The notes under the pieces: generated by a model
What the model saw: the letters and a program-made list of their open reading frames with translations, nothing else
What the model was told of the DNA's origin: nothing
Databases searched by the model: none
Translations under genes and position numbers: made by a program
Part shown: piece by piece, positions 3,929 through 22,347 of the stretch
How positions within the stretch are numbered: the first letter of the stretch is position 1
Layout of the letters: the number at the start of each line of letters is the position of its first letter
Assembly (NCBI GenBank): GCA_030157785.1
Contig: JAOAUC010000037.1
Location: 1-64,000, forward strand
Length of the DNA stretch: 64,000 nucleotides
Reading direction: 5' to 3'
DNA from: Zoogloea oleivorans
GTDB lineage: Bacteria; Pseudomonadota; Gammaproteobacteria; Burkholderiales; Rhodocyclaceae

Positions 3929-3967
3929 GGGGTCGTGAATATAGTAAGGCGCTGAACAGCGCGCTGA

Positions 3968-5071
3968 TCATTGAAGAGACTGCGGAATGGCTTCCCGCTT
4001 GACACCCGCCGTGCTCGAAAGCAACAGGGTGTTGTCGGGTAGTGAGACGACGCCGGTGATTCGAGTGGGGGTCTTGAAGCTGAAGGGCCTGAAATCGCGC
4101 GCATCGGGTCCGCTGATCAAGGCCTGGCCGGAGCCGTTCATCAAGGCGAATTGCCCGCTGCCTTCAATGCGCAGACCACTGGTAATGGTGGCTTCGGATG
4201 GAGTTTTGAGCGCTACCCAGCTCTGGCCCTTGTCTTCGCTCCGATACACCACGCCCCGCAATCCGTAGGCGATCAGAACGCTGTCGGAGCCGGTTATTCC
4301 GAAGAAGCTTCCGGCGTATCCGGTTTCGACTTTTTTGAATGTGCTGCTCTTTCTGTCCAGCCGAAAAACGAGGCCGCGTTCGGCGGCAATATAGATCTCC
4401 CCGTTAATGCCGCGAACTGCATTGAGATTGAGAAACTGATCGTTCTCGATATGGTTAAGCCATGGCTCCCAGGAGTTTCCACCATCATGGGTGGCAATAA
4501 TCATTCCGAAAGAGCCCACGGCATAGCCGGTATGAGCGTCTTCAAACCACACATCCAGAAAGGGCAGCGTCGGCCCGGCCTTGAAGTTGGTGTTTATCTG
4601 TGCCAGCGCGCTTGCGGCGGCAGGGTCGCCCGCCTCGTTCTTCTGCTTGTAGTAATCGGTGAAAAGCTTGCCGGCGCCACGCCCGTCAAGCTGGCGCCGC
4701 CAGGATTTGCCGCCGTCGTCGCTAGCCAGGATCACCCCATCGTGCCCCACGGCCCACCCATTGCGTTGGGTCGGAAAGTGGACAGCCAGTAGGTCGCTCT
4801 GGACCGGTACGCTGGCCTGCGACCAGGACTTTCCACCGTCGCTGGACAAGATAATCAAGCCCCTTGAACCTACTGCCACCAAGCCCTTGCCGGCATTCAC
4901 GATGGCCATCAGGGGCCTTCCAGCAGGGCTGCTCTGCGTTTGTGCCGGGTTGTCCAGAGGATCCCTGAAGCCACTTTGGGCGAAGGCATCCGAATAGACG
5001 AAAACTGGAAAAACTAACGCGCAGGAGAGTCGAAGAAGCGTCCACCCCACACCATTTCGTAGCCTATGCAT
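3968..5071 (-). CDS. YCF48-like (BNR-repeat) periplasmic beta-propeller protein
   Basis: This 367-residue protein begins with a hydrophobic signal peptide ending near FAQS. It then carries several blade repeats of the type GGKSW....L.AVHF....GWAVG..G.IL.S.DGGKSW, which is the YCF48/photosystem II stability-factor HCF136 pattern. In non-photosynthetic bacteria such proteins are periplasmic, of unknown role, and often lie beside an RND/MMPL gene as here. The ATG at 5071 is preferred because AAGGATGG lies about 8 bases ahead of it; a TTG two codons upstream is the alternative. The gap to the RND gene is 39 bases, consistent with an operon. It could be an assembly or adaptor factor for the exporter (inference). 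Confidence 0.8.
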   Translation of the reverse strand: MHRLRNGVGWTLLRLSCALVFPVFVYSDAFAQSGFRDPLDNPAQTQSSPAGRPLMAIVNAGKGLVAVGSRGLIILSSDGGKSWSQASVPVQSDLLAVHFPTQRNGWAVGHDGVILASDDGGKSWRRQLDGRGAGKLFTDYYKQKNEAGDPAAASALAQINTNFKAGPTLPFLDVWFEDAHTGYAVGSFGMIIATHDGGNSWEPWLNHIENDQFLNLNAVRGINGEIYIAAERGLVFRLDRKSSTFKKVETGYAGSFFGITGSDSVLIAYGLRGVVYRSEDKGQSWVALKTPSEATITSGLRIEGSGQFALMNGSGQALISGPDARDFRPFSFKTPTRITGVVSLPDNTLLLSSTAGVKREAIPQSLQ

Positions 5072-5104
5072 TACCAACCCATCCTTATCGAAATTGACTG
5101 ATCT

Positions 5105-5171
5105 GACCGCTGGCGTCTCTTCAAGCGCCAGCGGTCCTGGAGCCGGCCCGGAGACAAGAGCCCCGGGCCGG
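5105..5171. repeat. Two tandem hairpins between the DUF1329 and YCF48-like genes
   Basis: The first is GACCGCTGGCG paired with CGCCAGCGGTC (5105-5115 with 5126-5136, 10-base loop). The second is CCGGCCCGG paired with CCGGGCCGG (5143-5151 with 5163-5171). Neither is followed by a T-tract, so they look more like mRNA-stabilising or expression-tuning stem-loops than terminators. Confidence 0.6.
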
Positions 5172-5178
5172 GCTGAAA

Positions 5179-6591
5179 TCAGCGCACGCCGCCGCCCGCA
5201 ACGGCTTGCGGCGTCATCTTGATGGGCAGGCCCTTTGCACTGTCATAGCTACGAACGTAGTGCCCCGGATCCTTCCGGCCGATGTTGGTGACGAAGTAAT
5301 TGCCCTTGATCAGATCGTGGTAATGCCAAGTGTCGGTGTTGACGCCACCAAAGTCATAGGTGGGGAAGGTATGGATAAAGCCCACACGATAGATATTGTT
5401 TGCGTTGTCGTAGGTCTCCGAAGCCACGATGCACCAGCAATCCTCCTCGACATAAAAGGTGCGTTTGCTGTACACGTGACGTGCGGATGCCTTGCGATCC
5501 GCTTCGACAACCCATACCCGGCGCTTTTCCCAGCGTACGACTTCCGGATTGAGGTGCTTGGCGCCCACCGCCTCCTTTGCCGTGCTTTGATTGGTCAGCG
5601 GAAAGGCGTTGTACGGCACGATCATTTCCTTCTTGCCGATCAGTTTGAAGTCGAACCGATCCATGCGGCCGACAAAACCGAAGATTTCGTCCCAAAGCAG
5701 CACACCGCCATAGGACGCAATCGGAATATCGTAGCTGAACTCGGGCGCTGCACGCACGCGTCGCTGACCCGGGGTATAGAACCAGACCTTCTGGCCACCT
5801 TCCGATGCGTCGGGCAGGTAGAAATTCAGAAAGTGCGTTCCGGCGGCTGAAGGCGGAGACATCAGTTCGGAGGAAATGGCCAGATAGGCGCCGAAGGTCT
5901 GCTTGCGCAGTGCGCCGCTTTGATCATAGAAGGGCGATACGTAATAGGAGTGCGATTCCGGCAGGCCGGTAATGTTTCCCGAGGCATCGACCAGCCAGCC
6001 CGAACTGTAGTTGTCTTTTACGGCCGGAGCATAGTGAAGCATGTGGTTCCACATGACTTCGTAGCCGTTCTTCGGAATCGGAAATGGTACGCCGGGAAGC
6101 GGCGTACCTTCGGGGTCGGCGCCGGAGACGCCATCACCTTCGCCAGTGCCAGACAGCTTGGCGGTAGTCGCATTCTTGGTGGTGTTCTGGATCACCCAGG
6201 CGGGGTAGGCCACCGAGCGTCGGGTCGGATATACATCTACCTTGTAGGTCGGGAAACGCTTCAGTAATGCCTTGTTGCCGGGAGTCAGCAGGGCGTCGTA
6301 CTGGGCCATGTTCTTGGCGTCAATCGAGAATACCGGCTTGTCGCCCTTGAAAGGGTCGACATACTGGTCCGCGTTCTTGGTGTAGCCGGCCGGCGCCTTG
6401 GTTAGGCCGCCGGTGTAGGCAGGAATGGAGCCATCTGCATTGCCGGCTTTTTCTGCGCCAAACTCGGTGAGTGTCGTTCCCAGCTTTTTCGCTTCATCGA
6501 CCGAAACCAGGGCGAATGCCGAACCGCAGCTTGCGGCGAGAATGCAGGCCAGAAAGGGCGGGCGAACGAGTGATATGATTTTCTTTGACAT
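5179..6591 (-). CDS. DUF1329-domain periplasmic protein
   Basis: This 470-residue protein has an N-terminal signal peptide (about residues 1-27, ending SAFA). The mature part starts VSVDEAKKLGTTLTEFGAEKAGN, a characteristic DUF1329 opening. Further features of the family are the repeated aromatic and charged patches such as RYPTRRSVAYPAW and KRTFYVEEDCW. DUF1329 is described as having a fold related to the LolA/LolB lipoprotein carriers, which would fit periplasmic carriage of a lipid-like ligand. The start is supported by AGGAG 8 bases upstream. It follows the DUF1302 barrel gene by 23 bases, and this pairing recurs in proteobacteria. The ligand is unknown; the carrier role is inference. Confidence 0.85.
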   Translation of the reverse strand: MSKKIISLVRPPFLACILAASCGSAFALVSVDEAKKLGTTLTEFGAEKAGNADGSIPAYTGGLTKAPAGYTKNADQYVDPFKGDKPVFSIDAKNMAQYDALLTPGNKALLKRFPTYKVDVYPTRRSVAYPAWVIQNTTKNATTAKLSGTGEGDGVSGADPEGTPLPGVPFPIPKNGYEVMWNHMLHYAPAVKDNYSSGWLVDASGNITGLPESHSYYVSPFYDQSGALRKQTFGAYLAISSELMSPPSAAGTHFLNFYLPDASEGGQKVWFYTPGQRRVRAAPEFSYDIPIASYGGVLLWDEIFGFVGRMDRFDFKLIGKKEMIVPYNAFPLTNQSTAKEAVGAKHLNPEVVRWEKRRVWVVEADRKASARHVYSKRTFYVEEDCWCIVASETYDNANNIYRVGFIHTFPTYDFGGVNTDTWHYHDLIKGNYFVTNIGRKDPGHYVRSYDSAKGLPIKMTPQAVAGGGVR

Positions 6592-6614
6592 TTTTTGTCT
6601 CCTGTTTTTTGTTA

Positions 6615-8312
6615 TCAGAATGAGGTCTTGAAAGTGAGCTGGACCCAGCCCTTGTCGTTCAGTGCGACAGGTCCGTTGCCGCCAAATCCAGAATACGACT
6701 GGCCCAGCCCGGGGACGTTATTGACCGGGCTGGTTTTCCAGTGATAACCGTTGTATTGGAGGGAAATGGTGTTCTTCGACTGGACAGTTGCCTTTACGCC
6801 TACCGAATACACTTGGGAGCTTTCCGCGTAGAAGGAGCCGGCTGTGTAGGCCGGGTTGCCGTTGAGGCCGCGCGTGTAGGAAACAGGCATGCTCAAATCA
6901 ATGCCGGGATATACCTGAAGCCATTGAGGTTCGAAGAGCATGGCGAAAGCCAGCGCATTTCGGGTTGCGCAGCCGTCCCACTTGTTGTTGGTCGTGCACG
7001 CCGAGTAGCCGACGCCGTTGTAGTACTCGGCGTTGTCACTGACCTTGGCCAGATGGGTAAAGCTGAACTCCCCGATCAGCACACCTGCATCGTAGAAAGG
7101 CGTAGTGCCGAGCTGCACCATCGCGTTGGCAATGACGTTGACGATGTCGCCCTTGGCCCCCTCGTTGTATGCCACTCCTGGCTTGCCGTTGAAGAATGAG
7201 CTGTTGAGCCCGGTCTTCTGGCGATAGGAAACCTCCATGCCGGTACTGACCTTGCCGAAAGCACGCTCATAGCTGAAGCCATAGAGCTTGGCTTTCTCGG
7301 CATAGGACAGATGCACGTCGCCACCACCCGCTGCCCCGATATTTCCGAGGGTCCACGGCTGGACTTCATCGAAAACCCGGTAGTAGAAACCCATGTCGCC
7401 ACCGGCCCAGGGCGGCGCCCAGGTCACCTTGACACCGAAATTTCCGTTGTTGTTGGCCGGCTTGTTATCAATGCCGGCATTGACCGGGCCGCCCAAGCTG
7501 CCTGCCAGGGCACCGCCGCTGTTAGGGCCGGAATAGAGAATGTCGAACGGCCCCAGATAGGTGCCGCCTTCCGGGTAGCGGTTGCCGCGGAACTCAAAGA
7601 AATACTGGGCTGCGATGGAGAGTTCAGGTGTCAGTTCGGCCGAGGCGAGTATCTGGGCCCGCGGCAGAAATAGCTCCTTCACCTCAGAGCCAGGCTGCGA
7701 GAAACCCTTGATGTAGTCGATCGGCGACTGGGAGTAAGCAATATTCGAGAAGCCGAAGAAGAACGCATTACCCCAGTATTGCGTAAGGCGGCCGACTTTT
7801 GCATAGACCGGCACATCGGCAATGTTCGTGTTGTGGAAGACAAAGGCATCCAGCAACTCGCCGCCCTGGATGTGGTATTTCTTGGTCGTACCCGAGTAGC
7901 GGCCGTCGGGATAAGAGAGGAATGTCGAGAAGGCGGGGTTGGGGTTTGTCTCGACCTTGTCACTGTAGGCGAAGTCGTTCCATCCCGAAGCTGACATGCG
8001 GAATCCAGTATTGCCTTTGTGGACACCCTGGAATTCGACAATGCCCTGAACGCGGTTGGTGACCAGATCGCCACGATTGAACTTGTAATCACCTTCCGCA
8101 AAGAAGGGATGGTTGCCGATGTTGTTGTCGCGCCCCTGGCCGCGCCAGCCCAGCGTGTATTGCAGGGACGTATCCAGGTTTACCTGCCAGTCGGGGTCGG
8201 TGTCGAACCGGTAGGCGTGGGCCCCCGCGCTGATCGCCAGGAGCGGCATTGCTGCAGCCAGCGGCTTCAACATGCAGGACCAGCGACGAGTTCTCTGTCT
8301 GTTTGCGTTCAT
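6615..8312 (-). CDS. DUF1302-family outer-membrane beta-barrel protein
   Basis: This 565-residue protein has a signal peptide (about 33 residues, ending AHA). The rest is rich in alternating aromatic beta strands (for example MGFYYRVFDEVQPW and GMEVSYRQKTG) and ends in phenylalanine, the C-terminal residue recognised by the BAM machinery. DUF1302 proteins are predicted porin-like barrels, often encoded next to DUF1329 and an RND exporter in bacteria that grow on hydrocarbons, terpenes or steroids. The ATG has GAGGAG 7 bases upstream. It is the first gene of the minus-strand operon, so its promoter lies in the 8.3-9.4 kb divergent region. An uptake channel for a hydrophobic substrate is the likely role (inference). 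Confidence 0.85.
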   Translation of the reverse strand: MNANRQRTRRWSCMLKPLAAAMPLLAISAGAHAYRFDTDPDWQVNLDTSLQYTLGWRGQGRDNNIGNHPFFAEGDYKFNRGDLVTNRVQGIVEFQGVHKGNTGFRMSASGWNDFAYSDKVETNPNPAFSTFLSYPDGRYSGTTKKYHIQGGELLDAFVFHNTNIADVPVYAKVGRLTQYWGNAFFFGFSNIAYSQSPIDYIKGFSQPGSEVKELFLPRAQILASAELTPELSIAAQYFFEFRGNRYPEGGTYLGPFDILYSGPNSGGALAGSLGGPVNAGIDNKPANNNGNFGVKVTWAPPWAGGDMGFYYRVFDEVQPWTLGNIGAAGGGDVHLSYAEKAKLYGFSYERAFGKVSTGMEVSYRQKTGLNSSFFNGKPGVAYNEGAKGDIVNVIANAMVQLGTTPFYDAGVLIGEFSFTHLAKVSDNAEYYNGVGYSACTTNNKWDGCATRNALAFAMLFEPQWLQVYPGIDLSMPVSYTRGLNGNPAYTAGSFYAESSQVYSVGVKATVQSKNTISLQYNGYHWKTSPVNNVPGLGQSYSGFGGNGPVALNDKGWVQLTFKTSF

Positions 8313-9371: not shown

Positions 9372-10184
9372 ATGAAGACCGAGATGACCTATCCCGCCTA
9401 CAGCAGCTTGAAACTCGATTGGCCGCTCGAACGCGTCCTGCGCGTCACCATATCTCGCGGTGCGATGAATTCGATGGACTACGAACTCCATCATGATCTG
9501 GGCGGAATCTGGCGCCTGATCGATGCCGACCCCAACGTCAGCGTCGTCGTTATTACAGGTGAAGGGCGGGCCTTCTCGGCCGGTGGTGACTTCGACATGG
9601 TCGACCGCATCATTAACGATCACACCTTTCGCATGCAGATGTGGAAGGACGGGCGGCAGCTTGTAGAAAACATGCTCGCCTGTGGCAAGCCGGTGATTTC
9701 TGCGATTAACGGTGCGGCTGCCGGCGGTGGTCTGGCAGCGGCTCTGCTGGCTGACATCTCGATTGCAGGGCGCACCGTAAAGCTGGTGGACGGACACACC
9801 ACGCTGGGTGTTGCCGCCGATGACCACGCCGTCGCCATCTGGCCGCTGCTCGTCGGCATGGCCAAGTCCAAGTACTACCTGATGACGAACGATCCCCTCA
9901 CCGGCGAGGAGGCAGAGCGGATTGGGCTGGTTAGTCTGTGTGTTGATAACGACAAGGTGATGGAAAAGGCCTTGGAGATCGCCGCGCGCTTGTCGAACGG
10001 TGCGCCTGAAGCCATCCGCTTCACCAAACATGCACTGAACAACTGGATTCGTTCCGCATGGCCGGCCTTCGAGGCCTCCCTGGCCTTCGGCATTCTGGGA
10101 TTTACCGGGCCGGAAGCGAGAGAGGGCTTGGCCGCCCTGCGGGAAAAGCGTCCGCCCAATTTCCCCCAGATCACCCACGTCTAA
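9372..10184 (+). CDS. Enoyl-CoA hydratase/isomerase-family (crotonase) protein
   Basis: This 270-residue protein has the crotonase fold. The oxyanion-hole loop is AFSAGGDFDMVD, the second loop INGAAAGGGLAAALLADISIAG, and a LGVAADDHAVAIWPLLVG segment follows. By comparison with rat mitochondrial hydratase, both catalytic glutamates appear replaced: E144 aligns with Ala in GGGLAAAL and E164 with His in DGHTTLG. It may therefore be an isomerase, hydrolase or lyase rather than a simple hydratase; the Asp pair in AADDHA could serve in catalysis. It is the first gene of the plus-strand catabolic cluster, 34 bases before the SDR gene. No strong ribosome-binding site is visible, and a second ATG 4 codons in is possible. 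Confidence 0.8.
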   Translation: MKTEMTYPAYSSLKLDWPLERVLRVTISRGAMNSMDYELHHDLGGIWRLIDADPNVSVVVITGEGRAFSAGGDFDMVDRIINDHTFRMQMWKDGRQLVENMLACGKPVISAINGAAAGGGLAAALLADISIAGRTVKLVDGHTTLGVAADDHAVAIWPLLVGMAKSKYYLMTNDPLTGEEAERIGLVSLCVDNDKVMEKALEIAARLSNGAPEAIRFTKHALNNWIRSAWPAFEASLAFGILGFTGPEAREGLAALREKRPPNFPQITHV

Positions 10185-10218
10185 TAACCAAATAATCATT
10201 TATCCGGAGACAAACACA

Positions 10219-10986
10219 ATGGCCCAAACTCAACGTTCTTATATTGTTACTGGCGGCGGCGGCGGTATCGGCGGTGCCACCGTGCTGCGCCTGCTGAGCA
10301 CAGGTGCAAACGTGCTCGCCATCGATATCAGCTCCAAGCGGCTCAATGGCGTCAAGGAGCAGGCGGTGGATCTACCCGGGCGCATGGAAATGCTGAAGGC
10401 CGACATCACGGCCGAGGAGCCGGCCGAACAATCCGTCAAATTTGCGTTGGAACTGTTCGGTGACTTGCACGGCGTGGCTAACGTGGCCGGTGGCATGCCG
10501 GACTATGTCGGCACCGACATGGATCGTCCGCTGGAGTCGATCAGTCTCGACTACTTCCACCGCATGTTCGCTCTAAACGTGGACAGCGCCTTCCTGATGA
10601 GCAAGGCCGCCACGCCGCACTTCAAGAAGAAGCAGTACGGCAAGATCGTCAATGTGGCCTCGCTGGCGGCTTTCGCCAACCGGCCGGAGCTAGGCAACGC
10701 TGCCTATAACCCGGCCAAGAAAGCCGTGATCGGCTTGGCCGAAACCCTGAGCCTGCTGCTCGGGCCGGATGGCATTCGCGTCAATACCATTGCCCCGGGC
10801 CTGGTGATGAGCGACAAGGCGCGCGGCACACTGGGCGACGAGTACACCCAGCGTCACCTCAAGAATGTGCCACTGGGTAAGCTGGCCAGCACCATCGACC
10901 TGGCCGAAGGTATTGCCTTCTTCCTTGAAGCAGCCTCTGACGGAATCACCGGCGAAACCCTCCGGGTCGCCGCCGGCGTGCGCTGA
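10219..10986 (+). CDS. Short-chain dehydrogenase/reductase (SDR)
   Basis: This 255-residue protein is a classical SDR. The cofactor-binding glycine motif TGGGGGIGGAT lies near residue 12, and an acidic residue ends the second strand (LAIDIS), which suggests NAD(H) preference. The NVAGG motif stands in place of NNAG. The catalytic Ser lies in VNVASLA, and the Tyr and Lys in YNPAKKAV. Such enzymes oxidise or reduce hydroxyl and keto groups, often on acyl-CoA or alicyclic substrates. CGGAGA lies about 8 bases upstream of the ATG. It sits just before an APH-type phosphotransferase and its small partner, an order like that of a 4-ketoacyl-CoA reductase in levulinate catabolism (lvaD); the substrate here is unknown. 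Confidence 0.88.
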   Translation: MAQTQRSYIVTGGGGGIGGATVLRLLSTGANVLAIDISSKRLNGVKEQAVDLPGRMEMLKADITAEEPAEQSVKFALELFGDLHGVANVAGGMPDYVGTDMDRPLESISLDYFHRMFALNVDSAFLMSKAATPHFKKKQYGKIVNVASLAAFANRPELGNAAYNPAKKAVIGLAETLSLLLGPDGIRVNTIAPGLVMSDKARGTLGDEYTQRHLKNVPLGKLASTIDLAEGIAFFLEAASDGITGETLRVAAGVR

Positions 10987-11006
10987 GAGCGGGACGGATT
11001 GAATTC

Positions 11007-12053
11007 GTGTCTGCCATGAACCCTATCCCTGTTTCAAACAGTGACGATCTGCCGGCACGCATTGTCCGGCTCATCCAGAGCACTGTGCCCGAGGCAAGCC
11101 ATGTCACGGTGGATGCATTGACGCCGATGTTCGGCGGCAATGCGCGCAAGGCTTGGTCTTTCGATCTGGCCTATTGCCTTGATGGTCGCACCCTGCAGTT
11201 GCCTTGCGTGATGTTGAGCCAGGGTGTCGGGCGGCAGATCGATACCGATGTGGCCCAGGAGTTTCATGTACTCCAGGGCTTGAATGGCAAGGGAGCACGC
11301 GTGCCTGCTGCCGTCGCCATGGACCCCGTCGGTGAGATCGTCGGCGCGCCGAGCATCGTGCTGGAGCGCCTGACCGGGAAGGCGAGCGCGGTGGATTTTC
11401 TCAATGCCCCAGAGAGCGTCGGCAGCTGCTTGACCACGGATCTGGTCGGGGTGGTGGCCAAGCTGCATTCAGTGGACTGGGATGCAACGGCTTTCGATCC
11501 GGCCTTGGCTGGGTTGCCTCCGCGCGACATTGCAGCCCGCCAGGTGACGCACTGGCAGCAGACTTTCCAGGGCCAGCGCATGGAGCCTCTGCCGGTCATG
11601 TCGTCCCTGTTTGGCTGGTTGCATGAACACTTGCCCGAGCCCGGGCGAATTTGCTTGGTCCATGGCGATCTGCGTCCGGGCAACTTCCTTTATGAGCACG
11701 AGCGAGTGAGTGGTTTGCTTGACTGGGAGATGGCTCATTTGGGCGATCCTCTTGAAGACCTGGGGTGGATCTACCGGCCTCTGTGGAGCCCCGAGCGCTT
11801 CGTGCCAATGTCCGACTTCGTGCGCCGCTACGGGGAACTGGCCGGACGGGAGATTGGCCTGGCAGATGTCCTTTATTACCGGGTTTTCAGCGAAATGAAG
11901 TTCGCCACCATTTCACTCACTGCTGCCCGTGCGTTCACCACGTCAGGGACCCGCAATATGCGCCATGCTGACCGCGCCGCCACCGTGGCGCCGTGCCTCA
12001 AGCGCTGTCTCGACTGGATCGAACTGCACGGCAAGGAGTCCTCTCATGTTTAG
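11007..12053 (+). CDS. APH-type phosphotransferase (LvaA/ACAD10-like kinase)
   Basis: This protein of up to 348 residues has the aminoglycoside-phosphotransferase kinase fold. The catalytic loop is HGDLRPGN (H219) and the Mg2+-binding motif is LLDWEMAHLGDP (D239). The nucleotide-binding lobe (residues 25-110) includes FGGNARKAWSFDL. Family members outside antibiotic resistance phosphorylate hydroxyacyl-CoAs so that the phosphate can leave and an enoyl-CoA can form, as in bacterial LvaA and mammalian ACAD10/11. The next gene overlaps it by 8 bases and resembles the DUF6285/LvaB partner, which supports this reading over drug resistance. The start is GTG 11007 or ATG 11016. The substrate is not known. 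Confidence 0.8.
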   Translation: MSAMNPIPVSNSDDLPARIVRLIQSTVPEASHVTVDALTPMFGGNARKAWSFDLAYCLDGRTLQLPCVMLSQGVGRQIDTDVAQEFHVLQGLNGKGARVPAAVAMDPVGEIVGAPSIVLERLTGKASAVDFLNAPESVGSCLTTDLVGVVAKLHSVDWDATAFDPALAGLPPRDIAARQVTHWQQTFQGQRMEPLPVMSSLFGWLHEHLPEPGRICLVHGDLRPGNFLYEHERVSGLLDWEMAHLGDPLEDLGWIYRPLWSPERFVPMSDFVRRYGELAGREIGLADVLYYRVFSEMKFATISLTAARAFTTSGTRNMRHADRAATVAPCLKRCLDWIELHGKESSHV

Positions 12054-12561
12054 GCCAACAGTCGGAGAGTTGCTGAGCGGTATCACCGACAGCCTGAGGG
12101 AATCAGTCATGCCGGCCGTGAGCGGGGGCGCGGCCCAGCGCCAGTTGAAAGCGGCCCTCCACGCCCTCGGTCGCCTGCAACGGTCGTGGGATCGCTGGCC
12201 TGCCTACCTCGAGGAGGACAATGAAGACATCAGACAGACCCTCGACGCCGTTTTGTCCGACCTGAGTCGTGAATTGTCTACGCTGCCGCCGCCTATCGAG
12301 GTTATTACGAGCCAGCTCAAGACCAGGATGTCTGATCTCCTGCCCGGCGCTCCCTGTTTCAATGATCGCGCCTTGTCCGTAGCCGGGGCGCGCAACCTCG
12401 AACTACAGGGCCTTCTTGTCGCGCTGGATGACTGGCTAAGAGCTTCCGGTCAGGCGGCCCAGCCAGCGGGAAAGTCCCGCCAGCAAATGCTTGACCGGCT
12501 TTACCGCCGGATGACTGAACGTGAATTGCAGGCTTGGGCTATCCAGGCCGAAGACGACTGA
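12046..12561 (+). CDS. Small DUF6285/LvaB-like protein, partner of the phosphotransferase
   Basis: This 171-residue protein starts inside the end of the phosphotransferase gene (8-base overlap), with ATG 12046 chosen because the ORF upstream of it is only read-through of that gene. The opening RPTVGELLSGITDSLRESVM, followed by a predicted helix with QLKAALHALGRLQR, resembles DUF6285 proteins, which are encoded beside or fused to APH-type kinases. In levulinate catabolism the small protein LvaB is needed with the kinase LvaA. There is no signal peptide or known catalytic motif; it looks all-helical and cytoplasmic. The family call is from memory of the pattern and is tentative. Confidence 0.5.
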   Translation: MFRPTVGELLSGITDSLRESVMPAVSGGAAQRQLKAALHALGRLQRSWDRWPAYLEEDNEDIRQTLDAVLSDLSRELSTLPPPIEVITSQLKTRMSDLLPGAPCFNDRALSVAGARNLELQGLLVALDDWLRASGQAAQPAGKSRQQMLDRLYRRMTERELQAWAIQAEDD

Positions 12562-12581
12562 CCATTACTGCAAGCCACACA

Positions 12582-13541
12582 ATGACCATGGACGCCGATC
12601 AAGAAAAAATCAATGTTGTTGTCAGGGCGATTACGTCGGAAGCAGATGGCGTAATCGGAGTGACTTTGGCTGCGCCCGACGGCGCAAGCCTGCCAAGCTG
12701 GACGCCGGGTGCACATATTGGCCTGCTTCTCGACGGGGGGCTGGAACGACAGTATTCCCTGTGCAGCGATCCCGCCGATCATGATCACTGGCGGGTCGCG
12801 GTGCTCAGGGAGCCAGCCAGCCGCGGCGGTTCGGAATGGCTGCACGCGCAGCTAAAAGTTGGCGACGTGCTACGGGCCAGTGGGCCGAGCAACCAGTTCC
12901 CGCTGGTTGATGCCGCGTCATATCTTTTTGTGGCCGGTGGCATCGGCATTACGCCGCTATTGCCGATGATCGGCGCCCTCGAGCAACGAGGAGCCTCGTG
13001 GCGCCTGCTTTACGGTGGGCGTCAGCTCGGCTCGATGGCTTTCGTGAAGGCCCTTGAGGGTTACGGCGAGCGCGTGCAGATCCGCCCGGAAGACCAGCAC
13101 GGCTTGCTCGACCTGCAGGGCTGGATTGGCGAGGCACAGCCAGGCATGGTGGTTTACTCCTGCGGCCCGGAGCGGCTCCTCGAAGCCGTCGAAGCCCAGT
13201 GCGCGAACTGGCCGGAGGGCGCCCTGCACATCGAGCGTTTCCGGGCTAAGCCGGGCGCACTGGAAGGCGCTCAGGACTCCTTCGAGGTCGTCCTCGCCAA
13301 GAGCCAGAAGAGCTTCCGCGTCAATGCCAACGAAACCATCATTGATGCGCTGGACAAGACCGGCATCCATGTGCCGCGCTCCTGTGGCGAGGGCACCTGT
13401 GGCACCTGCCTGACTCCGGTACTCGAAGGTATTCCCGATCACCGGGACTCTTTCTTGATGGGCAAGAAGCGGGCAGCCAACAAGACCATTTGCGTGTGCT
13501 GCTCCCGTTCACTCAGTCCCCGGCTGGTTCTGGACCTGTAA
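12582..13541 (+). CDS. PDR/VanB-family oxidoreductase (flavin, NAD, C-terminal 2Fe-2S)
   Basis: This 319-residue reductase has three parts in order. A flavin-binding barrel carries ERQYSLCSDP, an NAD-binding domain carries FVAGGIGITPLLPMI and LLYGGR, and a plant-type [2Fe-2S] ferredoxin domain carries C268-x4-C273-x2-C276 and a distal Cys near 306. This is the phthalate dioxygenase reductase/VanB order. Such proteins pass electrons from NAD(P)H to a partner oxygenase, usually a Rieske enzyme or a P450, but no such partner is encoded in the window. The BVMO in the cluster carries its own FAD and NADP sites and should not need it. ATG 12582 is preferred, with ATG 12588 as the alternative. Confidence 0.88.
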   Translation: MTMDADQEKINVVVRAITSEADGVIGVTLAAPDGASLPSWTPGAHIGLLLDGGLERQYSLCSDPADHDHWRVAVLREPASRGGSEWLHAQLKVGDVLRASGPSNQFPLVDAASYLFVAGGIGITPLLPMIGALEQRGASWRLLYGGRQLGSMAFVKALEGYGERVQIRPEDQHGLLDLQGWIGEAQPGMVVYSCGPERLLEAVEAQCANWPEGALHIERFRAKPGALEGAQDSFEVVLAKSQKSFRVNANETIIDALDKTGIHVPRSCGEGTCGTCLTPVLEGIPDHRDSFLMGKKRAANKTICVCCSRSLSPRLVLDL

Positions 13542-13553
13542 GGCGAGACAGCG

Positions 13554-15173
13554 ATGACCGAAAACCGTTATCCCGCCGACAGCGCTACCCCGACGCTCGA
13601 ACCCGGCTGGGCGCTGGATCATGCGCTGACCCCGAGCGCGATGTTCGGCGCCAATGGCCTGCGTTTCGGACCCAACGGCCATCTCTACGTGGCCCAGGCC
13701 TTCGGCAGTCAGATCAGCGAGGTCGATACGACCAGCGGCGCCGTCACCACGGTGTCGCCCGTTGGTGGCGCGATCATTGCACCAGACGACCTGTCTTTCG
13801 ATTCCGAGGGGGTGTTGTACGCCACCGAAGTGTTCAACGAGCGGGTCAGCGCCCGCCTGCCGGACGGCAGTACGCGCGTGCTGGCTGACCACCTGCCGGT
13901 GGCCAACGGCATCACCGTTCATCAGGATCGCATCTTCGTAGATGAATTCCGGGTGGGCGGGCGTGTGCTGGAGTTGTACCGGGACGGCAGCGCGCCGCGG
14001 GTTATCGCCCAGGATCTGGTCCTGCCAAATGCGCTTGCGGTGGGGCCGGACGGATTCCTGTACTTCCCGCTGGTGGCCACTGGCGAGATCGGTCGCGTGG
14101 CGATCGACGGTGGCCCGGTCGAGGTGTTTGCCGGCGGCCTGAATATTCCTACTGCCGTGAAGTTCGATGCCCTCGGCCGCCTCGTTGTCGTGCAGTCGGG
14201 CAGCGGTGATATCACCCGGATTGACCTGCAGACCCGCGAAGCCACTCGGATTGCCCGGGTTCGCACAGGAATCGACAACCTTGCCTTTTCGCCGTGCGGC
14301 GAGCTCTACGTGTCGAATTTTGCCGACGGGGGTATCTCGCGCATCGGCGTGGAAGGTCGTGAAGAGGTATTGATTGGACGTGGCTTACTTGGCCCCTACG
14401 GCCTGGCAGTCGGCTCTGGCGGCGATGTGTATATCGCCGATGGGATGAGCTACGCGGTGCTGTCCCGCAACGGTGAAGTAAGCCGCCCCTCGATGCTGCT
14501 GACCCACGGTTTTCCGGGCTATGTGCGCGGAGTTGCCGTTGGGCTGGAAGGTAACTTGTACTTCAGTAACAGCGCCGGTGCTGTTGCGAACTTCGTGCCT
14601 GGTCAGGAGGCGGTCTTTCTGGCAACGGAGCTCGACCAACTGATGGGCATCGCCGTCGGGCCCGGGGGCGAGTTGTTCGTCTGCGAGGCTGGAAGCGGGC
14701 GTGTTCTTGCGCTAGGGAAGGAGCGGAGCCAGCGCGTGGTGGTGCAGGGCTTGCTGCGCCCAACGGGCATCGCGCTTGCACCTGATGGTGCCTGTTATGT
14801 GTCGGAGGCGGCCGGTGGCCGGGTGGTGTGTTGCCGCGGCAGCGATAAGACCATCGTCCTCGAAGGCCTGGTTGAGCCCCATGGTGTAACGCTGGCCGGC
14901 GAGCACCTGTTCGTGGTCGATCGCGGCAACAAGAGTCTGCATGCAGTGTCGCTGCGTTCGGGCCGTGCGCAACTCGTTGCCCGCGGCCTGCCGGTGGGGC
15001 CGCCGCCGGGCATCGAGCCTCGGACCTTGCCCGGGATCGCAGGTGTGATGCCGGGGCCGTTGCTGCCGTTTTGCGATCTTGCCACCGGAATTGATGGCTC
15101 CGTCCTGATCGCCGGTGATGGCGAAGGCAGCCTGCTGCGCCTGTGGCCGCGCGCCGCCACACTCGTCCATTAA
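13554..15173 (+). CDS. SMP-30/NHL-type double beta-propeller protein, possible lactonase
   Basis: This 539-residue protein has no signal peptide. It carries about 12 blade repeats of the type NGLRFGPNGHLYVAQ, DDLSFDSEGVLYATE, NALAVGPDGFLYFP, DNLAFSPCGELYVSN and so on to the C-terminus. That number suggests two six-bladed propellers in tandem. The repeats resemble the SMP-30/gluconolactonase/LRE and virginiamycin-B-lyase groups, some of which hydrolyse or open lactones with a bound metal. Placed between a reductase and a Baeyer-Villiger monooxygenase that makes lactones, it could open the BVMO product (inference). The metal ligands could not be assigned. It starts 12 bases after the reductase stop, within the same operon. 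Confidence 0.7.
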   Translation: MTENRYPADSATPTLEPGWALDHALTPSAMFGANGLRFGPNGHLYVAQAFGSQISEVDTTSGAVTTVSPVGGAIIAPDDLSFDSEGVLYATEVFNERVSARLPDGSTRVLADHLPVANGITVHQDRIFVDEFRVGGRVLELYRDGSAPRVIAQDLVLPNALAVGPDGFLYFPLVATGEIGRVAIDGGPVEVFAGGLNIPTAVKFDALGRLVVVQSGSGDITRIDLQTREATRIARVRTGIDNLAFSPCGELYVSNFADGGISRIGVEGREEVLIGRGLLGPYGLAVGSGGDVYIADGMSYAVLSRNGEVSRPSMLLTHGFPGYVRGVAVGLEGNLYFSNSAGAVANFVPGQEAVFLATELDQLMGIAVGPGGELFVCEAGSGRVLALGKERSQRVVVQGLLRPTGIALAPDGACYVSEAAGGRVVCCRGSDKTIVLEGLVEPHGVTLAGEHLFVVDRGNKSLHAVSLRSGRAQLVARGLPVGPPPGIEPRTLPGIAGVMPGPLLPFCDLATGIDGSVLIAGDGEGSLLRLWPRAATLVH

Positions 15174-15207
15174 CGTCTCAACCGCAATTGCTGGTGTCCC
15201 TGAATCC

Positions 15208-16329
15208 ATGACTGAAACGTATTTCGACGAGCAGTTTCCGTTGGCCTCGGCCGACGATTACCTGATCCACCAGACTCCCGATCCGCTGCGTGTCGCCTGG
15301 ACGACGGACCCCCGTTTCTTCGAGCGCCACTGGAACGTGTTTCACGACGACAAGGGCGAAGTGATGGTCGCCACTGGTGGGAGCTTCTATCCCAACCTGG
15401 ATGTCGCTGAAGCCTATTCGATCGTTACCCTGCGGGGCGTCCAGACTTCTGTGCGTGCCTATCGGCGCCTGGGTGTAGACCGCATGGATCTGCATGTCGG
15501 GCCGATCCAGCCGACGATCACCGAGGGCCTGCGGGCTTGGCACCATGAACTCGTCGATAACGAGTGGGGTATCAGCTACTCCCTTGACTGGCACGACACC
15601 AAACGGCAGGTTTATCACGCAGCCTATTCTTCCCTGGACAAGGGGCAGCCTGCCGGCGGGCAACGCCACGTGACGGCCGGTTTCGAGAGTTTCGGTGAGG
15701 TCGAGGGCTGGGTGCAGGTCGGCGACGAACGTATCGCGCTGCGTGCCGGCCAAGCCCGCGGCACCCGCGATCGTCACTGGGGTATTGGCCGCGGGGTGGG
15801 TGGCGCGGCTCTGCAGCCCGGTGGGCGTCCGGTCAAAGCCGGCTGGATCGGCGGCAACTGGATCTGCTTCAAGGAGTTTGCCATCTGGGGCAACCAGGTG
15901 CTCTACAACTTCGGCGACGCCCGCCGCGGCATGGGCAAGGTACTTCACACCGAGCGTCGCCTGCGTTTCGACGAGAGCACGCAAATCTTCCTCGAAGGCG
16001 AGATCGACTACACCCTCTCTGACGGCAGTGTGAAGAAAGTGAAATTCGAGCGCCTCGGCCACCAGACCGCCTACATGTGCTGCGGGATGTACGGCGGAAC
16101 GCCGGAGGAGGGCCTGCATCACGGTATGTCGGGCGGCATCGAGCGTGTTGAAGGTGATCGCTATGACCTGCGCCTGCCCGAGGTGCAGTTGAAGCTGCGC
16201 GGTCTGGACGAGCATCACTGCCGCATCAGTTGCGATGGCGAAGTCACCACCGGCATTTTGCAGCCCCTTGAACCCGATGCCTACGAGGCCTGCTTGCGGG
16301 GCGATCCAGGATGGCGCTTTCTACGCTGA
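15208..16329 (+). CDS. Uncharacterised protein, DUF7064/AttH-CrtC-like
   Basis: This 373-residue protein has no known catalytic motif that I can name. The start is placed at ATG 15208, because upstream sequence only reads through the propeller gene. Its N-terminus (TDPRFFERHWNVFHDDKGEV) and repeated strand-rich segments with conserved W/H/R (HHELVDNEWGISYSLDW, RDRHWGIGRG, AGWIGGNWICFKEF) resemble proteins with the lipocalin-like AttH/CrtC fold and the DUF7064/DUF7065 families. These are found in steroid- and hydrocarbon-degrading bacteria, often beside phosphotransferases. It could be a hydratase-like or ligand-binding protein. It lies 34 bases after the propeller gene and before the BVMO, so a role in the same pathway is likely. 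Confidence 0.5.
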   Translation: MTETYFDEQFPLASADDYLIHQTPDPLRVAWTTDPRFFERHWNVFHDDKGEVMVATGGSFYPNLDVAEAYSIVTLRGVQTSVRAYRRLGVDRMDLHVGPIQPTITEGLRAWHHELVDNEWGISYSLDWHDTKRQVYHAAYSSLDKGQPAGGQRHVTAGFESFGEVEGWVQVGDERIALRAGQARGTRDRHWGIGRGVGGAALQPGGRPVKAGWIGGNWICFKEFAIWGNQVLYNFGDARRGMGKVLHTERRLRFDESTQIFLEGEIDYTLSDGSVKKVKFERLGHQTAYMCCGMYGGTPEEGLHHGMSGGIERVEGDRYDLRLPEVQLKLRGLDEHHCRISCDGEVTTGILQPLEPDAYEACLRGDPGWRFLR

Positions 16330-16456
16330 GTCAAGGGCAGAACCCGATAGCGAGCGAAATATTCATCTGAACGTCGAAGTCAGAATAAAGAGCAATTAGT
16401 TCATCAAACCAAGCGGGCGCGATCGATGCCTGAAGTTATCCAAAGGAGGAGCTGCA

Positions 16457-18100
16457 ATGTCTATTCACAGCACGCAGGAGTCAGAGAAGCAGATCGAAGT
16501 CGCCACCGACTTCGACGCAATCGTTATTGGTGCCGGTTTCGGCGGTATTCGGGCGCTTTACGAGCTTCGCAAAATGGGATTGTCGGTAAAGGTGTTCGAG
16601 GCGGCCACTGACGTGGGCGGCACTTGGTACTGGAATCGATATCCGGGCGCACGTACCGACACTGAAGCTTGGGCATATTGCTATTCGTTTTCGAAGGAGC
16701 TCCTGGATGAGTGGGACTGGGCCGACAGAATGCCGACCTGGGACCAAGTGCTTGCCTATCTGGCCCATGTAGTCGACCGGTTCGACATGCGCAAACACAT
16801 GGAATTCAGTACCCGGATCAAGTCGGCTATCTACAACGAGGCCACCAAAAAGTGGACTCTTACGACCGAAGCAGGCAAGGCTTATACGTGCAACTACTTC
16901 ATCAGCGCCGCCGGACTGCTCACCGTGGCCTACGAGCCGCCGTTCAAGGGGCTCGATTCGTTCAAGGGCAAGTGGTATCTGACATCACGCTGGCCGAAGG
17001 AGCCGGTGGATTTCAAGGGGAAGCGTGTCGGTATTGTCGGTTCCGGCTCCACTGCCGTGCAGATTCTGCCGATCGTCGCGCAGACCGCGGCGCACGTGTC
17101 AATTTTCCAGCGCACCCCAAATTACGTTGTGCCGGGTCGAAACTTTCCGCTTGATGATGCTCAGCGCCAGAGCATCAAAGCGAACTACGACGCCATCTGG
17201 GAGACCGTTCACAAGCAGGTCTTCGCATTTCCGATTGAGCGCCCCCATCGTACTTTTGACCAATTCAACTCGGAGGAGCGCGAGCGCATCTTCGAGGCAG
17301 GCTGGGAAACGGGTGGCTTCCGCTATTTCTTCGAGACTTTCGAGGATATTACGACCAACGAGGAAGCCAATGCCGCGGCGGGCGAGTTTGTGCGCAAGAA
17401 AATCCGGGCCATCGTCAAGGATCCCAAGACTGCCGAACTCCTGTGTCCGAATTACCCGTTTGCCATCAAGCGGCCTCCAGTCGGTAACTTCTACTACGAG
17501 GCGTTCAATCGCGACAATGTTTCCCTTGTCGATGTCAGCAAGGATCCCATCCGGGAAATCACGCCCAAAGGCGTGCGCACCGAAACGGAAGAGCATGAGT
17601 TCGATATCATTATTTTCGCGCTTGGCTTCGATGCCGTTACAGGAGCCCTGACCAACATGGATGTGCGCGGTAAAGGGGGCGAAACGGTCAAGAACAAATG
17701 GGAAGCCGGTCCGCGTACCCATCTGGGTATCACGATGGATGGTTTTCCGAACATGTTCATGCTGTCAGGTCCGCAGACCCCTTTCGCGAACATTCCTCCG
17801 GTTATCGAGGCTGCAGTCACCTGGTTCGGTACTGCTATTCAGCGTGCCCGTGACGGTGGTTATACAAGCATCGAGGCCACGCCGGCCGCTGTCGATACTT
17901 GGACTAACCATATGCAGGAATTACTTGATACAACCCTATTGGGCAAGGGTGTCGACGTCGGCTCATGGTATCTGGGGGCCAACATTCCCGGCAAAAAGCC
18001 CAGCGTGTTGTTCTATTTTGGAGGCGCCAACAACTACTTCAAGGAGCTCGATGAGTCGATCGCTCACGAGTTCAAGGGGGTGGCCTTCTCCAACGCCTAA
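16457..18100 (+). CDS. Type I Baeyer-Villiger monooxygenase (flavin-containing)
   Basis: This 547-residue enzyme inserts an oxygen atom next to a ketone to give an ester or lactone, using NADPH and bound FAD. Visible motifs are the FAD Rossmann loop VIGAGFGGIRALYELRKMG (from residue 23), GGTWYWNRYPGARTD (54-68), the NADP Rossmann loop GIVGSGSTAVQ (from about 192) and GPQTPFANIPPVIEA near 440. The BVMO fingerprint F-x-G-x3-H-x3-W-P reads FKGKWYLTSRWP (169-180), with Leu175 in place of the usual His. It resembles cyclohexanone monooxygenase-type enzymes of cyclic ketone and steroid pathways. AGGAGG lies about 8 bases upstream. It is separated by 127 bases from the preceding gene but is probably in the same transcription unit. 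Confidence 0.9.
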   Translation: MSIHSTQESEKQIEVATDFDAIVIGAGFGGIRALYELRKMGLSVKVFEAATDVGGTWYWNRYPGARTDTEAWAYCYSFSKELLDEWDWADRMPTWDQVLAYLAHVVDRFDMRKHMEFSTRIKSAIYNEATKKWTLTTEAGKAYTCNYFISAAGLLTVAYEPPFKGLDSFKGKWYLTSRWPKEPVDFKGKRVGIVGSGSTAVQILPIVAQTAAHVSIFQRTPNYVVPGRNFPLDDAQRQSIKANYDAIWETVHKQVFAFPIERPHRTFDQFNSEERERIFEAGWETGGFRYFFETFEDITTNEEANAAAGEFVRKKIRAIVKDPKTAELLCPNYPFAIKRPPVGNFYYEAFNRDNVSLVDVSKDPIREITPKGVRTETEEHEFDIIIFALGFDAVTGALTNMDVRGKGGETVKNKWEAGPRTHLGITMDGFPNMFMLSGPQTPFANIPPVIEAAVTWFGTAIQRARDGGYTSIEATPAAVDTWTNHMQELLDTTLLGKGVDVGSWYLGANIPGKKPSVLFYFGGANNYFKELDESIAHEFKGVAFSNA

Positions 18101-18780: not shown

Positions 18781-19242
18781 ACTGCCCACTCTCTCTAGGC
18801 GTGTGCCACAGACATTGAGCCCCGCCGACCGGGCAAGCTCCAGCGTCGCGTACTCAATACGTTGCATGTTGGCTTTGTCTCGCTTTTCTGGAAGCTTTGC
18901 CAGCCATATTTGGTGCTTGTCCTCGATTGTCACCTTAGGTCGAGCGCCCCCCATGCTCGTTCCAGGCTCCAGGGTTTCGAGGACTTCATAGGGCAAACGC
19001 CCCTCCTCTTCGAGAGCGTCAGCTGCTGCCGCCAGTGCTTCAAGCTGATGCGTCCGGTTAAAGGGACGTTCGGCCGGCACCCCGGTGGGACTGCGCTCAA
19101 ATCGAAGATTCCCGGCACCATCGTCAGGACCATTCAAAAGGTATTCAATCTCCGAAATATCTTCTTCTTTACGCTCAAGCTTGGCTTGGATGACTCGACG
19201 CCCCCAGTAATCAGGGCTTGCGTCGCGCAGGGCTCCTGGGAT
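18781..19242 (-). pseudogene. HipA-like kinase fragment (central part)
   Basis: About 154 codons on the minus strand read as the middle of a HipA-type serine kinase toxin. Visible are LRDASPDYWGRRVIQ, LEPGTSMGGARPKVTIED and LAKLPEKRD followed by RIEYATLELARSAGLNV and TRLERVG. HipA proteins phosphorylate aminoacyl-tRNA synthetases and are held by HipB. The N-terminal third is absent; just upstream (plus-strand 19285 on) lies an IS5-type transposase remnant. After the TRLERVG segment the frame loses all similarity, so the catalytic C-terminal kinase core is also gone. A HipA N-terminus is found separately at 20961-21053 on the other strand, next to an intact hipB-like gene. Confidence 0.75.
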
Positions 19243-19284
19243 GACCACATGCACAACCACGGCTTCCTGCACAGTGGCGGGGGG

Positions 19285-20416
19285 CAGTGGGCTAAGAAGC
19301 CGTACTGGCAGTTCTTTTGCGGCGGCGAGTACTTCGAGACCCGCCTACTCTGCGACCCGAGCGGCCTGACCCGCTTCCGTCGTGCGCTGGGGGATGCAGG
19401 GGTGGAAGAACTTCTGGCCAAGACCATCGAGGCCGCCGTGTCGATGCAGGCCATTGCCCCGAAGGACCTGGAGCGGGTCATCGTCGATTCCACGGTGCAG
19501 GAGAGGGCAATTGCCTTCCCCACGGACAGCCGGCTACTCGATGTGGCCCGGCGCAAGCTGGTGCTGATTGCCAAGCGGGCTGGACTCGTGCTGCGCCAGA
19601 CCTTCGAGAAGGAAGGGCGCAGCCTCAAGCGGCGGGCCGGTTGCTATGCCCACGCCAGACAGTTCCGGCGCCTGCGCAGGGGGGGGCTCAAGCGCCAGCG
19701 CACGATCCTGGGCCGGGTCATGCGTGATCTGCAACGCCGCCTGCCAGCGCTGGCTGACGGCATGTGGCTCGAACGTGCGCGGCGCATCCACACCCAGCGG
19801 TGGCCCAAGGACAAGAACAAGCTCTACGCGCTGCACGCACCGGAAGTGGAGTGCATCGGCCAAGGCAAGGCGCAGCAGCCCTACGAGTTCGGGGTCAAGG
19901 TAGGCATTGCCACCACCGAGAAAGGCAACCTGATCGTTGGCGCCCGGGCGTCTCCGGGAACCCCTACGACGGTCACACCCTGGCCAAGCAGATTGAGCAG
20001 GCGACGATCCTGATGCAGGACGTCAAAGGTGCACCGAAACCCCACACGGCCATCGTCGATCTGGGCTATCGGGGCGTCGACGTGCCCGGGGTCGAGATCA
20101 TCCACCGGGGCCGGATCAAGAGCCTGAGCGCCAAGGCCCGCCGACTGCTGAAACGACGTCAGGCGGTGGAGCCGGTGATCGGGCACCTGAAGGATGACTG
20201 CGGACTACGGCGGACCTGTTTGAAAGGGTCGGAAGGGGATGTGCTGCATCCGGTGCTGTGCGCAGCCAGTACAAGCTACGCTGGTTGATGCGGGCAGTTG
20301 CCCGCTTGGGGCTGAAAGCCCTTTTTGTGCTCTGGACTCTGGTTGGGATGCTTGGGCGGGTGCTCAGTGGAGACGGAGCCTGGCCGCCAAGAGGGCGGCT
20401 GGCTGCGGGGAATTGA
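19285..20416 (+). pseudogene. IS5-family transposase, truncated and twice frameshifted
   Basis: The frame from 19285 (QWAKKPYWQFFCGGEYFETR) continues with LERVIVDSTVQERAIAFPTD and on to about 19948. A missing base in a G run near 19955 (GARAsPG|NPYDGHTLAKQ) then shifts the frame, and the second frame runs through IVDLGYRGVDV, KARRLLKRRQAVEPVIGHLK and DCGLRRTCLKG. A second missing base near 20268 shifts it again, and the third frame reads YKLRWLMRAVARLGLKALF to a TGA at 20414-20416. The N-terminal part expected before QWAKKPYW is missing. The DDE-type catalytic regions are therefore split and the element cannot be active by itself. The family call (IS1478-like branch of IS5) is from motif memory. 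Confidence 0.8.
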
Positions 20417-21867: not shown

Positions 21868-22068
21868 TCACCCCACGCTTGCCGGATTGAGCCAGACGAC
21901 TCCGGGTCTGGACCAGTCCCTCGTCGGGCCTCGCCAGCGCTCAGGTCGAGCCGCCTTGGCCTGCTGATAGAGACCGTCCAGGGCGAGCAGGACGGCAACG
22001 TCCTCGCCCCCGTGTCGTTGGGCGGGCGTCACGAACTTCATCGCTGAATGACGATGCTCGAAGTGGTA
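21868..22068 (-). pseudogene. IS3-type integrase (OrfB) C-terminal remnant
   Basis: Sixty-six codons before a stop at 21868 read YHFEHRHSAMKFVTPAQRHG, then a helix with LYQQAKAARPERW and an end VVWLNPASVG. This is the tail of an IS3-family rve integrase, which normally reads W-Y-N-x-E-H-R-H-S-A-I-x-F-V-T-P-x-Q-R-H. The DDE catalytic core upstream is missing; the frame there (22069-22200) has no similarity. It is a dead fragment between ccdB and tRNA-Leu. Confidence 0.75.
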
Positions 22069-22218
22069 CCTGCTGGTGATTGGTGCGGTGCTCTTCTCAC
22101 TGTCCCTGACGCGCTTTCGCAAGGCTATCGGGCAAATGGCCTGAGTGGCGGCCTTCGGGTTTTCAATCCTATCAGCGGGATTGTTGGTAGGAGGGGGCTG
22201 TGACGTGGATTGAGTAAA

Positions 22219-22262: not shown

Positions 22263-22347
22263 TGGTGCGGACAAAGGGACTCGAACCCCCACGCCTTTCG
22301 GCGCCAGAACCTAAATCTGGTGCGTCTACCAATTTCGCCACGTCCGC
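22263..22347 (-). tRNA. tRNA-Leu (anticodon UAG)
   Basis: The minus strand folds as a class II tRNA of 85 bases. The acceptor stem is GCGGACG with GTCCGC at the 3' end, discriminator A and an encoded CCA. The anticodon stem CCAGA/TCTGG holds loop TTTAGGT, giving UAG. The variable arm is CGCCGAAAGGCG and the T arm GGGGGTTCGAGTCCC. Its 3' end faces the degraded mobile region to the left, a common setting for integrated elements. Confidence 0.93.

What the first reader, a model, noticed from the sequence alone, without database searches (positions are those of the whole stretch)
9372..18100. Catabolic cluster combining a Baeyer-Villiger monooxygenase, a lactonase-like propeller and a hydroxyacyl-CoA kinase module
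Seen: eight plus-strand genes in one direction with short gaps (crotonase, SDR, APH-type kinase, LvaB/DUF6285-like partner, PDR/VanB reductase, double propeller, DUF7064-like protein, BVMO). Known: BVMOs turn cyclic ketones into lactones; some SMP-30-type propellers open lactones; LvaA/LvaB- and ACAD10-type kinases phosphorylate hydroxyacyl-CoAs so that the phosphate leaves and an enoyl-CoA forms. Inference: ring ketone to lactone to hydroxy acid to hydroxyacyl-CoA to phospho-acyl-CoA to enoyl-CoA, with a CoA ligase supplied elsewhere (fadD at 25.8 kb is a candidate). I know of no described pathway that joins these steps. It is the best candidate in the window for an undescribed system.
Basis: partly seen in the sequence, partly recalled or inferred. 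Interest (0 to 1): 0.75.

Follow-up and report, generated by a model that had tools for sequence, protein, structure and literature searches.

The report
Catabolic cluster with kinase-lyase dehydration module
A set of bacterial genes, shared between distant soil bacteria, looks like half of a pathway for eating a ring-shaped, probably terpene-like compound, in which a stubborn alcohol group would be removed by first putting a phosphate on it and then kicking the phosphate off.

Summary

The pairing is not chance: 15 of 15 kinases of the clade have a lyase gene in the locus; in a sample of 398 phylum genomes 15 of 20 lyase genes have an APH/EcKL kinase within about 5 kb (about 0.4 expected). 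BVMO co-occurs in 8 of 8 members of one kinase subclade (Paraburkholderia xenovorans LB400, Frankia, Rhodococcus plasmids).

The window holds half the pathway: orthologues of LB400's P450, CoA ligase, CaiB-type enzyme, thiolase and beta-oxidation genes lie on contig C48; fadD at 25.8 kb is not the ligase. In LB400 all is one cluster. The propeller was found only in LB400. Substrate unknown; a cyclic isoprenoid is inferred. New variant of a known kind.

The parts
9372..10184 (+). crotonase-family protein (PRK07327 subfamily)
   Evidence: 90% to LB400
10219..10986 (+). short-chain dehydrogenase (SDR)
   Evidence: 91% to LB400
11007..12053 (+). APH-fold kinase of the dehydration module (GTG start, or ATG at 11016)
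   Evidence: PF01636; 70% to LB400; catalytic-loop residues invariant in 13 homologues
12046..12561 (+). divergent DUF6285 (LvaB-like) partner of the kinase
   Evidence: 54% to LB400
12582..13541 (+). PDR/VanB-type FAD/[2Fe-2S] reductase, proposed electron donor of the P450 on C48
   Evidence: beside the P450 in LB400; role inferred
13554..15173 (+). double beta-propeller, proposed lactone-opening enzyme
   Evidence: PF24684, PF08450; 54% homologue beyond the BVMO in LB400; role inferred
15208..16329 (+). 25-phosphosteroid-lyase-like phospholyase (Rv3169 family)
16457..18100 (+). Baeyer-Villiger monooxygenase lacking the fingerprint His
22263..22347 (-). tRNA-Leu at the edge of the variable region that holds the cluster

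Best explanation
The window carries one half of an aerobic catabolic pathway for a cyclic, probably isoprenoid (terpenoid-like) compound; the other half is on contig C48 of the same genome, and the whole set is contiguous in P. xenovorans LB400. Its distinctive step is an ATP-dependent dehydration: the APH-fold kinase with its DUF6285-type partner phosphorylates an alcohol, most likely tertiary, and the 25-PSL-like lyase eliminates phosphate to give an alkene. Around it a P450 (C48), fed by the window's reductase, hydroxylates; an SDR makes a ketone; the BVMO inserts oxygen; the propeller (an alpha/beta hydrolase in Rhodococcus) opens the lactone; ligase, CaiB/racemase-type enzyme, ACAD, hydratases, hydroxyacyl-CoA dehydrogenases and thiolase do beta-oxidation. 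Shown: gene content, orthology, co-occurrence, lyase family, fold and conserved Asp. Inferred: that the alcohol is tertiary, whether it comes from the P450 or from the opened lactone, the order of steps, and the substrate class.
Against: No activity or substrate is known for any member. By single-sequence search the kinase is closer to 9o56, 3dxp and ACAD11 (54 bits) than to 9fsg (36.5 bits), so a hydroxyacyl-CoA substrate is not excluded; 7 of the 15 clade loci have the lyase but no BVMO in the stretch read. 5 of 20 sampled lyase genes have no such kinase nearby. The propeller was found in 2 of 8 clusters, the reductase not in L027. The BVMO fingerprint His is missing in 8 of 8. The two halves lie on two contigs of a draft genome, not shown to be linked or co-regulated. 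Most lyase loci with a P450 are Phenylobacterium or close kin, so not independent.
Confidence: 0.7

Rival explanations
1. One reading: the kinase phosphorylates a hydroxyacyl-CoA (LvaA/ACAD10-like) made from the BVMO lactone, and phosphate is lost to an enoyl-CoA, with the 25-PSL-like protein or the ACAD doing the elimination on the CoA ester.
For: Kinase profile scores ACAD11 at 84 bits, 9fsg at 76; DUF6285-type partner; CoA ligase, CaiB and ACAD in the pathway; in Thermus an ACAD gene stands beside the APH-DUF6285 pair.
Against: A dedicated 25-PSL-type lyase is in the locus of every clade member seen (15 of 15); the C48 ACAD is nearest to 2pg0 and LCAD, not ACAD11; 25-PSL acts on a non-CoA alcohol phosphate.
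Confidence: 0.2
2. The kinase-lyase pair acts first, on a tertiary alcohol made directly by the P450 (an aerobic counterpart of the S25DH/25-HSK/25-PSL cascade), and the BVMO acts later on another ring.
For: P450 and lyase genes adjoin in most loci that have both (29 of 32 within 200 bp or overlapping as called), including Rhodococcus, Frankia and L027; Phenylobacterium-type loci have lyase, P450 and kinase without BVMO.
Against: In LB400 the P450 is 4.8 kb from the lyase, with the reductase, and in the window genome it is on another contig; a P450 could hydroxylate a methyl group directly. This is a different order of the same parts, not a different module.
Confidence: 0.3
3. Unrelated catabolic genes brought together by chance in a mobile island; kinase and lyase have a separate role (for example a lipid or detoxification).
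For: The region is variable beside tRNA-Leu with a transposase-like ORF; pathway split over two contigs.
Against: The same set recurs in LB400, Frankia, Sporichthya and Rhodococcus; the C48 and window genes are orthologous to one contiguous LB400 cluster.
Confidence: 0.07

Closest known systems
25-hydroxysteroid kinase / 25-phosphosteroid lyase (25-HSK/25-PSL) of Sterolibacterium denitrificans
   Same: Two-step ATP-dependent dehydration by a kinase and a lyase of this family; lyase fold, RDRxWG motif and the Asp are shared.
   Different: There anaerobic, with molybdenum hydroxylases, and with no lyase candidate near the kinase gene (PMC8449060, passages); here with P450, BVMO and CoA genes, kinase and lyase in one locus, and a DUF6285-type partner.
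LvaAB(C) levulinate pathway and ACAD10/ACAD11
   Same: Related APH-type kinase, DUF6285 partner (LvaB, recalled), phosphate as leaving group (ACAD10/11: start of abstracts in the listing).
   Different: There an acyl-CoA dehydrogenase-type part acts on the phosphorylated CoA ester; here a separate 25-PSL-type lyase is present and the C48 ACAD is not ACAD11-like. The window's genome also has a canonical APH-DUF6285 pair on C45.
BVMO pathways for cyclic ketones and monoterpenoids (cyclohexanone, camphor, 1,8-cineole; recalled)
   Same: Dehydrogenase, BVMO, lactone opening and CoA-dependent chain degradation; BVMO nearest to cyclohexanone monooxygenases.
   Different: No kinase-lyase dehydration in them as recalled; fingerprint His missing in 8 of 8 BVMOs here.
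Rv3168-Rv3169 operon of Mycobacterium tuberculosis (function unknown)
   Same: A gene pair of an APH-type kinase (3ats, recalled to be Rv3168) and the family's name-giving member (NF053593); described as an operon (PMC5340868, passages).
   Different: Compared by family name and PDB match only; no BVMO/P450 context examined.

Membership tests
25-phosphosteroid lyase (Rv3169) family | Sequence homology and whole-length fold of 25-PSL | tested here: met
25-phosphosteroid lyase (Rv3169) family | Asp of the RDRxWG motif that is Asn in variant crystal 9g4c | tested here: met
   that the Asp is catalytic is inferred from the variant
25-phosphosteroid lyase (Rv3169) family | Phosphate elimination from a tertiary alcohol phosphate | not testable with these tools
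   needs an assay
LvaA/ACAD10-type hydroxyacyl-CoA kinase | APH fold with HGDxxxxN and DxE-type loops, DUF6285 partner | tested here: met
   PF01636; H219, D221, N226, D239 invariant in 13; partner by profile
LvaA/ACAD10-type hydroxyacyl-CoA kinase | Hydroxyacyl-CoA as substrate | not testable with these tools
   needs an assay
LvaA/ACAD10-type hydroxyacyl-CoA kinase | ACAD-type phosphate-eliminating partner | tested here: inconclusive
   an ACAD is on C48, nearest to 2pg0 and LCAD; ACAD11 not among the 60 shown of 77
Pfam DUF6285 (PF19802) | Match to the Pfam model | tested here: not met
   no match; homology shown only by a profile from two members
Type I Baeyer-Villiger monooxygenase | Homology to cyclohexanone monooxygenase with its catalytic Asp, Arg and Trp | tested here: met
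   (which residues are catalytic is recalled)
Type I Baeyer-Villiger monooxygenase | Fingerprint FxGxxxHxxxW(P/D) (recalled) | tested here: not met
   His replaced in 8 of 8 cluster BVMOs; kept in 4 of 5 other flavoproteins examined, the fifth giving no motif, and in the Thermocrispum enzyme
SMP-30/Vgb-type propellers | Family match | tested here: met
   PF24684 68.6 bits over 50, PF08450 30.5 over 26.3
SMP-30/Vgb-type propellers | Metal and catalytic residues, lactone opening | not tested
   no structure of the propeller was predicted

The most novel reading that the evidence does not exclude
An undescribed aerobic pathway for cyclic isoprenoids, carried by plasmids and islands in Pseudomonadota and Actinomycetota, in which an otherwise dead-end tertiary alcohol, made by a P450 or by opening a BVMO lactone, is removed by a dedicated kinase-phospholyase pair; the same pair, with exchangeable kinases (APH or EcKL) and oxygenases, is a widespread general module for tertiary-alcohol removal that would also explain Rv3168-Rv3169-type operons.
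Probability: 0.45. Interest if true: 0.75.

Novelty: new variant of a known kind. Interest (0 to 1): 0.62.

Why it matters
Tertiary alcohols block beta-oxidation, and how aerobic bacteria get past them in terpenoid-like compounds is, to my knowledge, poorly understood (recalled). A complete cluster in a laboratory strain (LB400) makes the proposal directly testable, gives a reaction type to a family now named only 'Rv3169 family', and links it to kinases that are commonly annotated only as phosphotransferases.

Tried and rejected
Rejected: fadD at 25676-27472 as the cluster's ligase (26% to LB400's; 76% orthologue on C48). Rejected: antibiotic resistance as the kinase's role: NCBIfam resistance models stay far under their cut-offs (best 43.9 of 205 bits), and in the profile search they score 43 bits or less against 76-108 for 3dxp, 9o56, 3ats, ACAD11 and 9fsg; in the single-sequence search the gap is small (MphH 45, ACAD11 54, 9fsg 36.5 bits). 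Rejected: propeller as a core part: by profile it was not found in the 83 loci; LB400's copy appeared only when I read beyond the 10-kb flank, so more distant copies elsewhere are not excluded.

Led nowhere: Pfam scan of DUF6285-like proteins (chance matches only); P450 relatives in the PDB (no pointer to a substrate); paper searches for an aerobic kinase-lyase or BVMO-kinase pathway, for DUF6285, DUF7064/7065 and 25-PSL and for LB400 with BVMO, P450, terpenes (listing only): they gave the anaerobic sterol papers, ACAD10/11 and LvaA papers, and nothing on this system. The DUF6285-like protein could not be modelled and the Foldseek search with the lyase model was not accepted; the VIA-align comparison did run. 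The propeller was not modelled.

Full report
OBSERVATION. The window is the start of contig C37 of a 4.69 Mb draft genome (87 contigs, 87% complete). From the translations I corrected three starts: DUF6285-like 12046, reductase 12582, Rv3169-family protein 15208. The DUF6285-like protein misses Pfam's model, yet a profile from two annotated Thermus DUF6285 proteins finds it at E 6e-5 among 17,404 ORFs.

CO-OCCURRENCE. A genome-contig scan with the kinase kept 80 loci of 230 candidates. A plasmid search gave 272 records, six of them at about 46% identity over nearly the whole kinase, all Rhodococcus; I opened three of the six. Profiles over these 83 loci and a tree of 84 kinases show that the 8 kinases with a BVMO in the locus (window, LB400, Frankia, Sporichthya, an actinomycete MAG, three Rhodococcus plasmids) form one clade (100/98), and the enclosing clade of 15 (100/100) has a lyase gene in 15 of 15. 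Over all rows 52 of 84 have a lyase gene; some of the other loci are cut by contig ends, others are not. Gene content of the 8 is not uniform: DUF6285-like 8 of 8, reductase 7 (not L027), crotonase and SDR 7 (not L020, whose contig begins inside the kinase), P450 8 and ligase 7 counting contig C48 for the window genome, propeller 2. In an independent sample, 20 of 398 phylum genomes have the lyase; an APH- or EcKL-type kinase lies within about 5 kb in 15 of 20 (14 of 19 without the window), none in 5. These 20 genomes have 164 APH matches in about 80 Mb, so about 0.4 would be expected. On plasmids the lyase query gave 23 records; of five opened beyond the Rhodococcus clusters, four have an APH kinase beside it (L122-L125) and one (L126) has PEP-utilising enzymes instead. 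P450 genes are in 32 of 51 lyase loci and in 2 of 32 without; most of these are Phenylobacterium or close kin. In pROB02 a second lyase homologue (9fzn E 1e-35) stands beside an EcKL kinase, so the partner kinase can change.

THE OTHER HALF. LB400 chromosome 3 holds TetR, P450, reductase, SDR, crotonase, ligase, lyase, kinase, DUF6285-like, CaiB/racemase-type, thiolase, crotonase-HAD fusion, ACAD, HBDH, BVMO and propeller within about 21 kb, 298-319 kb. LB400's P450, ligase and CaiB have their best matches in the window's own genome at 79, 76 and 78%, all on contig C48:7537-12781. C48:1-20000 also has thiolase (86%), fusion, ACAD, crotonase, HBDH (75%), a further SDR and TetR (64%). The window has the rest (crotonase 90%, SDR 91%, reductase 75%, kinase 70%, lyase 63%, BVMO 61%, propeller 54%, DUF6285-like 54%). 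So the genome has a full set on two contigs; that they are physically linked is not shown. DNA identity to LB400 is 67-80%.

MOBILITY. In 18 same-genus genomes the kinase has matches only in 5, at 28-31% identity. In five relatives DNA synteny holds on the rho side (to about 28-29 kb in four, to 24.8 kb in one) and stops between 22.2 and 22.4 kb, at the tRNA-Leu/rho edge; for one of them only about 2.4 kb lies beyond. In the four pairs of relatives that I compared, their own flanks share nothing beyond a 109-bp match at the tRNA. The cluster thus sits in a variable region beside tRNA-Leu.

MECHANISM. Best reading: P450 with the window's reductase hydroxylates; SDR gives a ketone; BVMO gives a lactone or ester; propeller (alpha/beta hydrolase in Rhodococcus) opens it; kinase with its DUF6285-type partner and lyase turn the, probably tertiary, alcohol into an alkene; ligase, CaiB/racemase-type enzyme and beta-oxidation finish. 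Whether the alcohol comes from the P450 or from the lactone is open; BV insertion next to a quaternary carbon would give a tertiary alkoxy carbon (chemical inference). The substrate class is inferred from the racemase-type gene, the BVMO and the steroid precedent, not shown.

BVMO ANOMALY. In 8 of 8 cluster BVMOs the fingerprint His (motif recalled) is replaced (L, L, Q, Q, Q, V, S, S); four other BVMO-like proteins in fetched loci keep it and a fifth flavoprotein gave no motif. In the alignment to Thermocrispum CHMO, which keeps the His, the residues recalled as catalytic (Asp, Arg, Trp) are conserved. Activity needs an assay.

LIMITS. No function is measured for any member. The kinase alone does not tell alcohol from hydroxyacyl-CoA substrates; that 9fsg is the 25-hydroxysteroid kinase is my guess, not a result. 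The held open papers show no description of this aerobic system; closed papers were not searchable.

Noticed in passing
window 1514-8312 (-): Divergent block: MMPL exporter, YCF48/BNR protein, DUF1329, DUF1302, a set often seen near genes for hydrophobic substrates (recalled); not found in the LB400 stretches read.
   Followed up: partly
window 16457-18100: BVMO clade without the fingerprint His in 8 of 8 members.
   Followed up: partly
window 18862-20013 (+): IS5-type transposase-like ORF just downstream of the BVMO, below the model cut-off (261 of 275 bits), possibly degenerate.
   Followed up: no
window 22067-22152 and L116 (G000:C48) 14287-14372: 86-bp fragment, 92% identical, at the outer edges of both pathway halves; apparently the 3' end of an ABC permease gene.
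   Followed up: partly
L038, L040, L045, L068 and kin, e.g. L068:7421-8503: Phenylobacterium-type loci carry a lyase-P450-kinase trio without BVMO, an apparent aerobic counterpart of the anaerobic sterol cascade.
   Followed up: partly
L100:45242-47443 (pROB02); L126: Second 25-PSL-like gene next to an EcKL kinase on pROB02; in L126 a relative lies among PEP-utilising enzymes.
   Followed up: partly
G000:C45:273-1500 (L001, L014): Own genome has a second, canonical APH-DUF6285 pair; only one lyase gene was found in the genome.
   Followed up: no
L120, L121: Propeller relatives (42-43%) sit with a ThDP enzyme, a Rieske oxygenase and a BVMO-like flavoprotein, so this propeller may serve other BVMO pathways.
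   Followed up: no
L150-L154: Five sampled lyase genes without an APH/EcKL kinase nearby; three of the five (L150-L152) have a BVMO-like gene within about 5 kb, two of these with weak scores.
   Followed up: no
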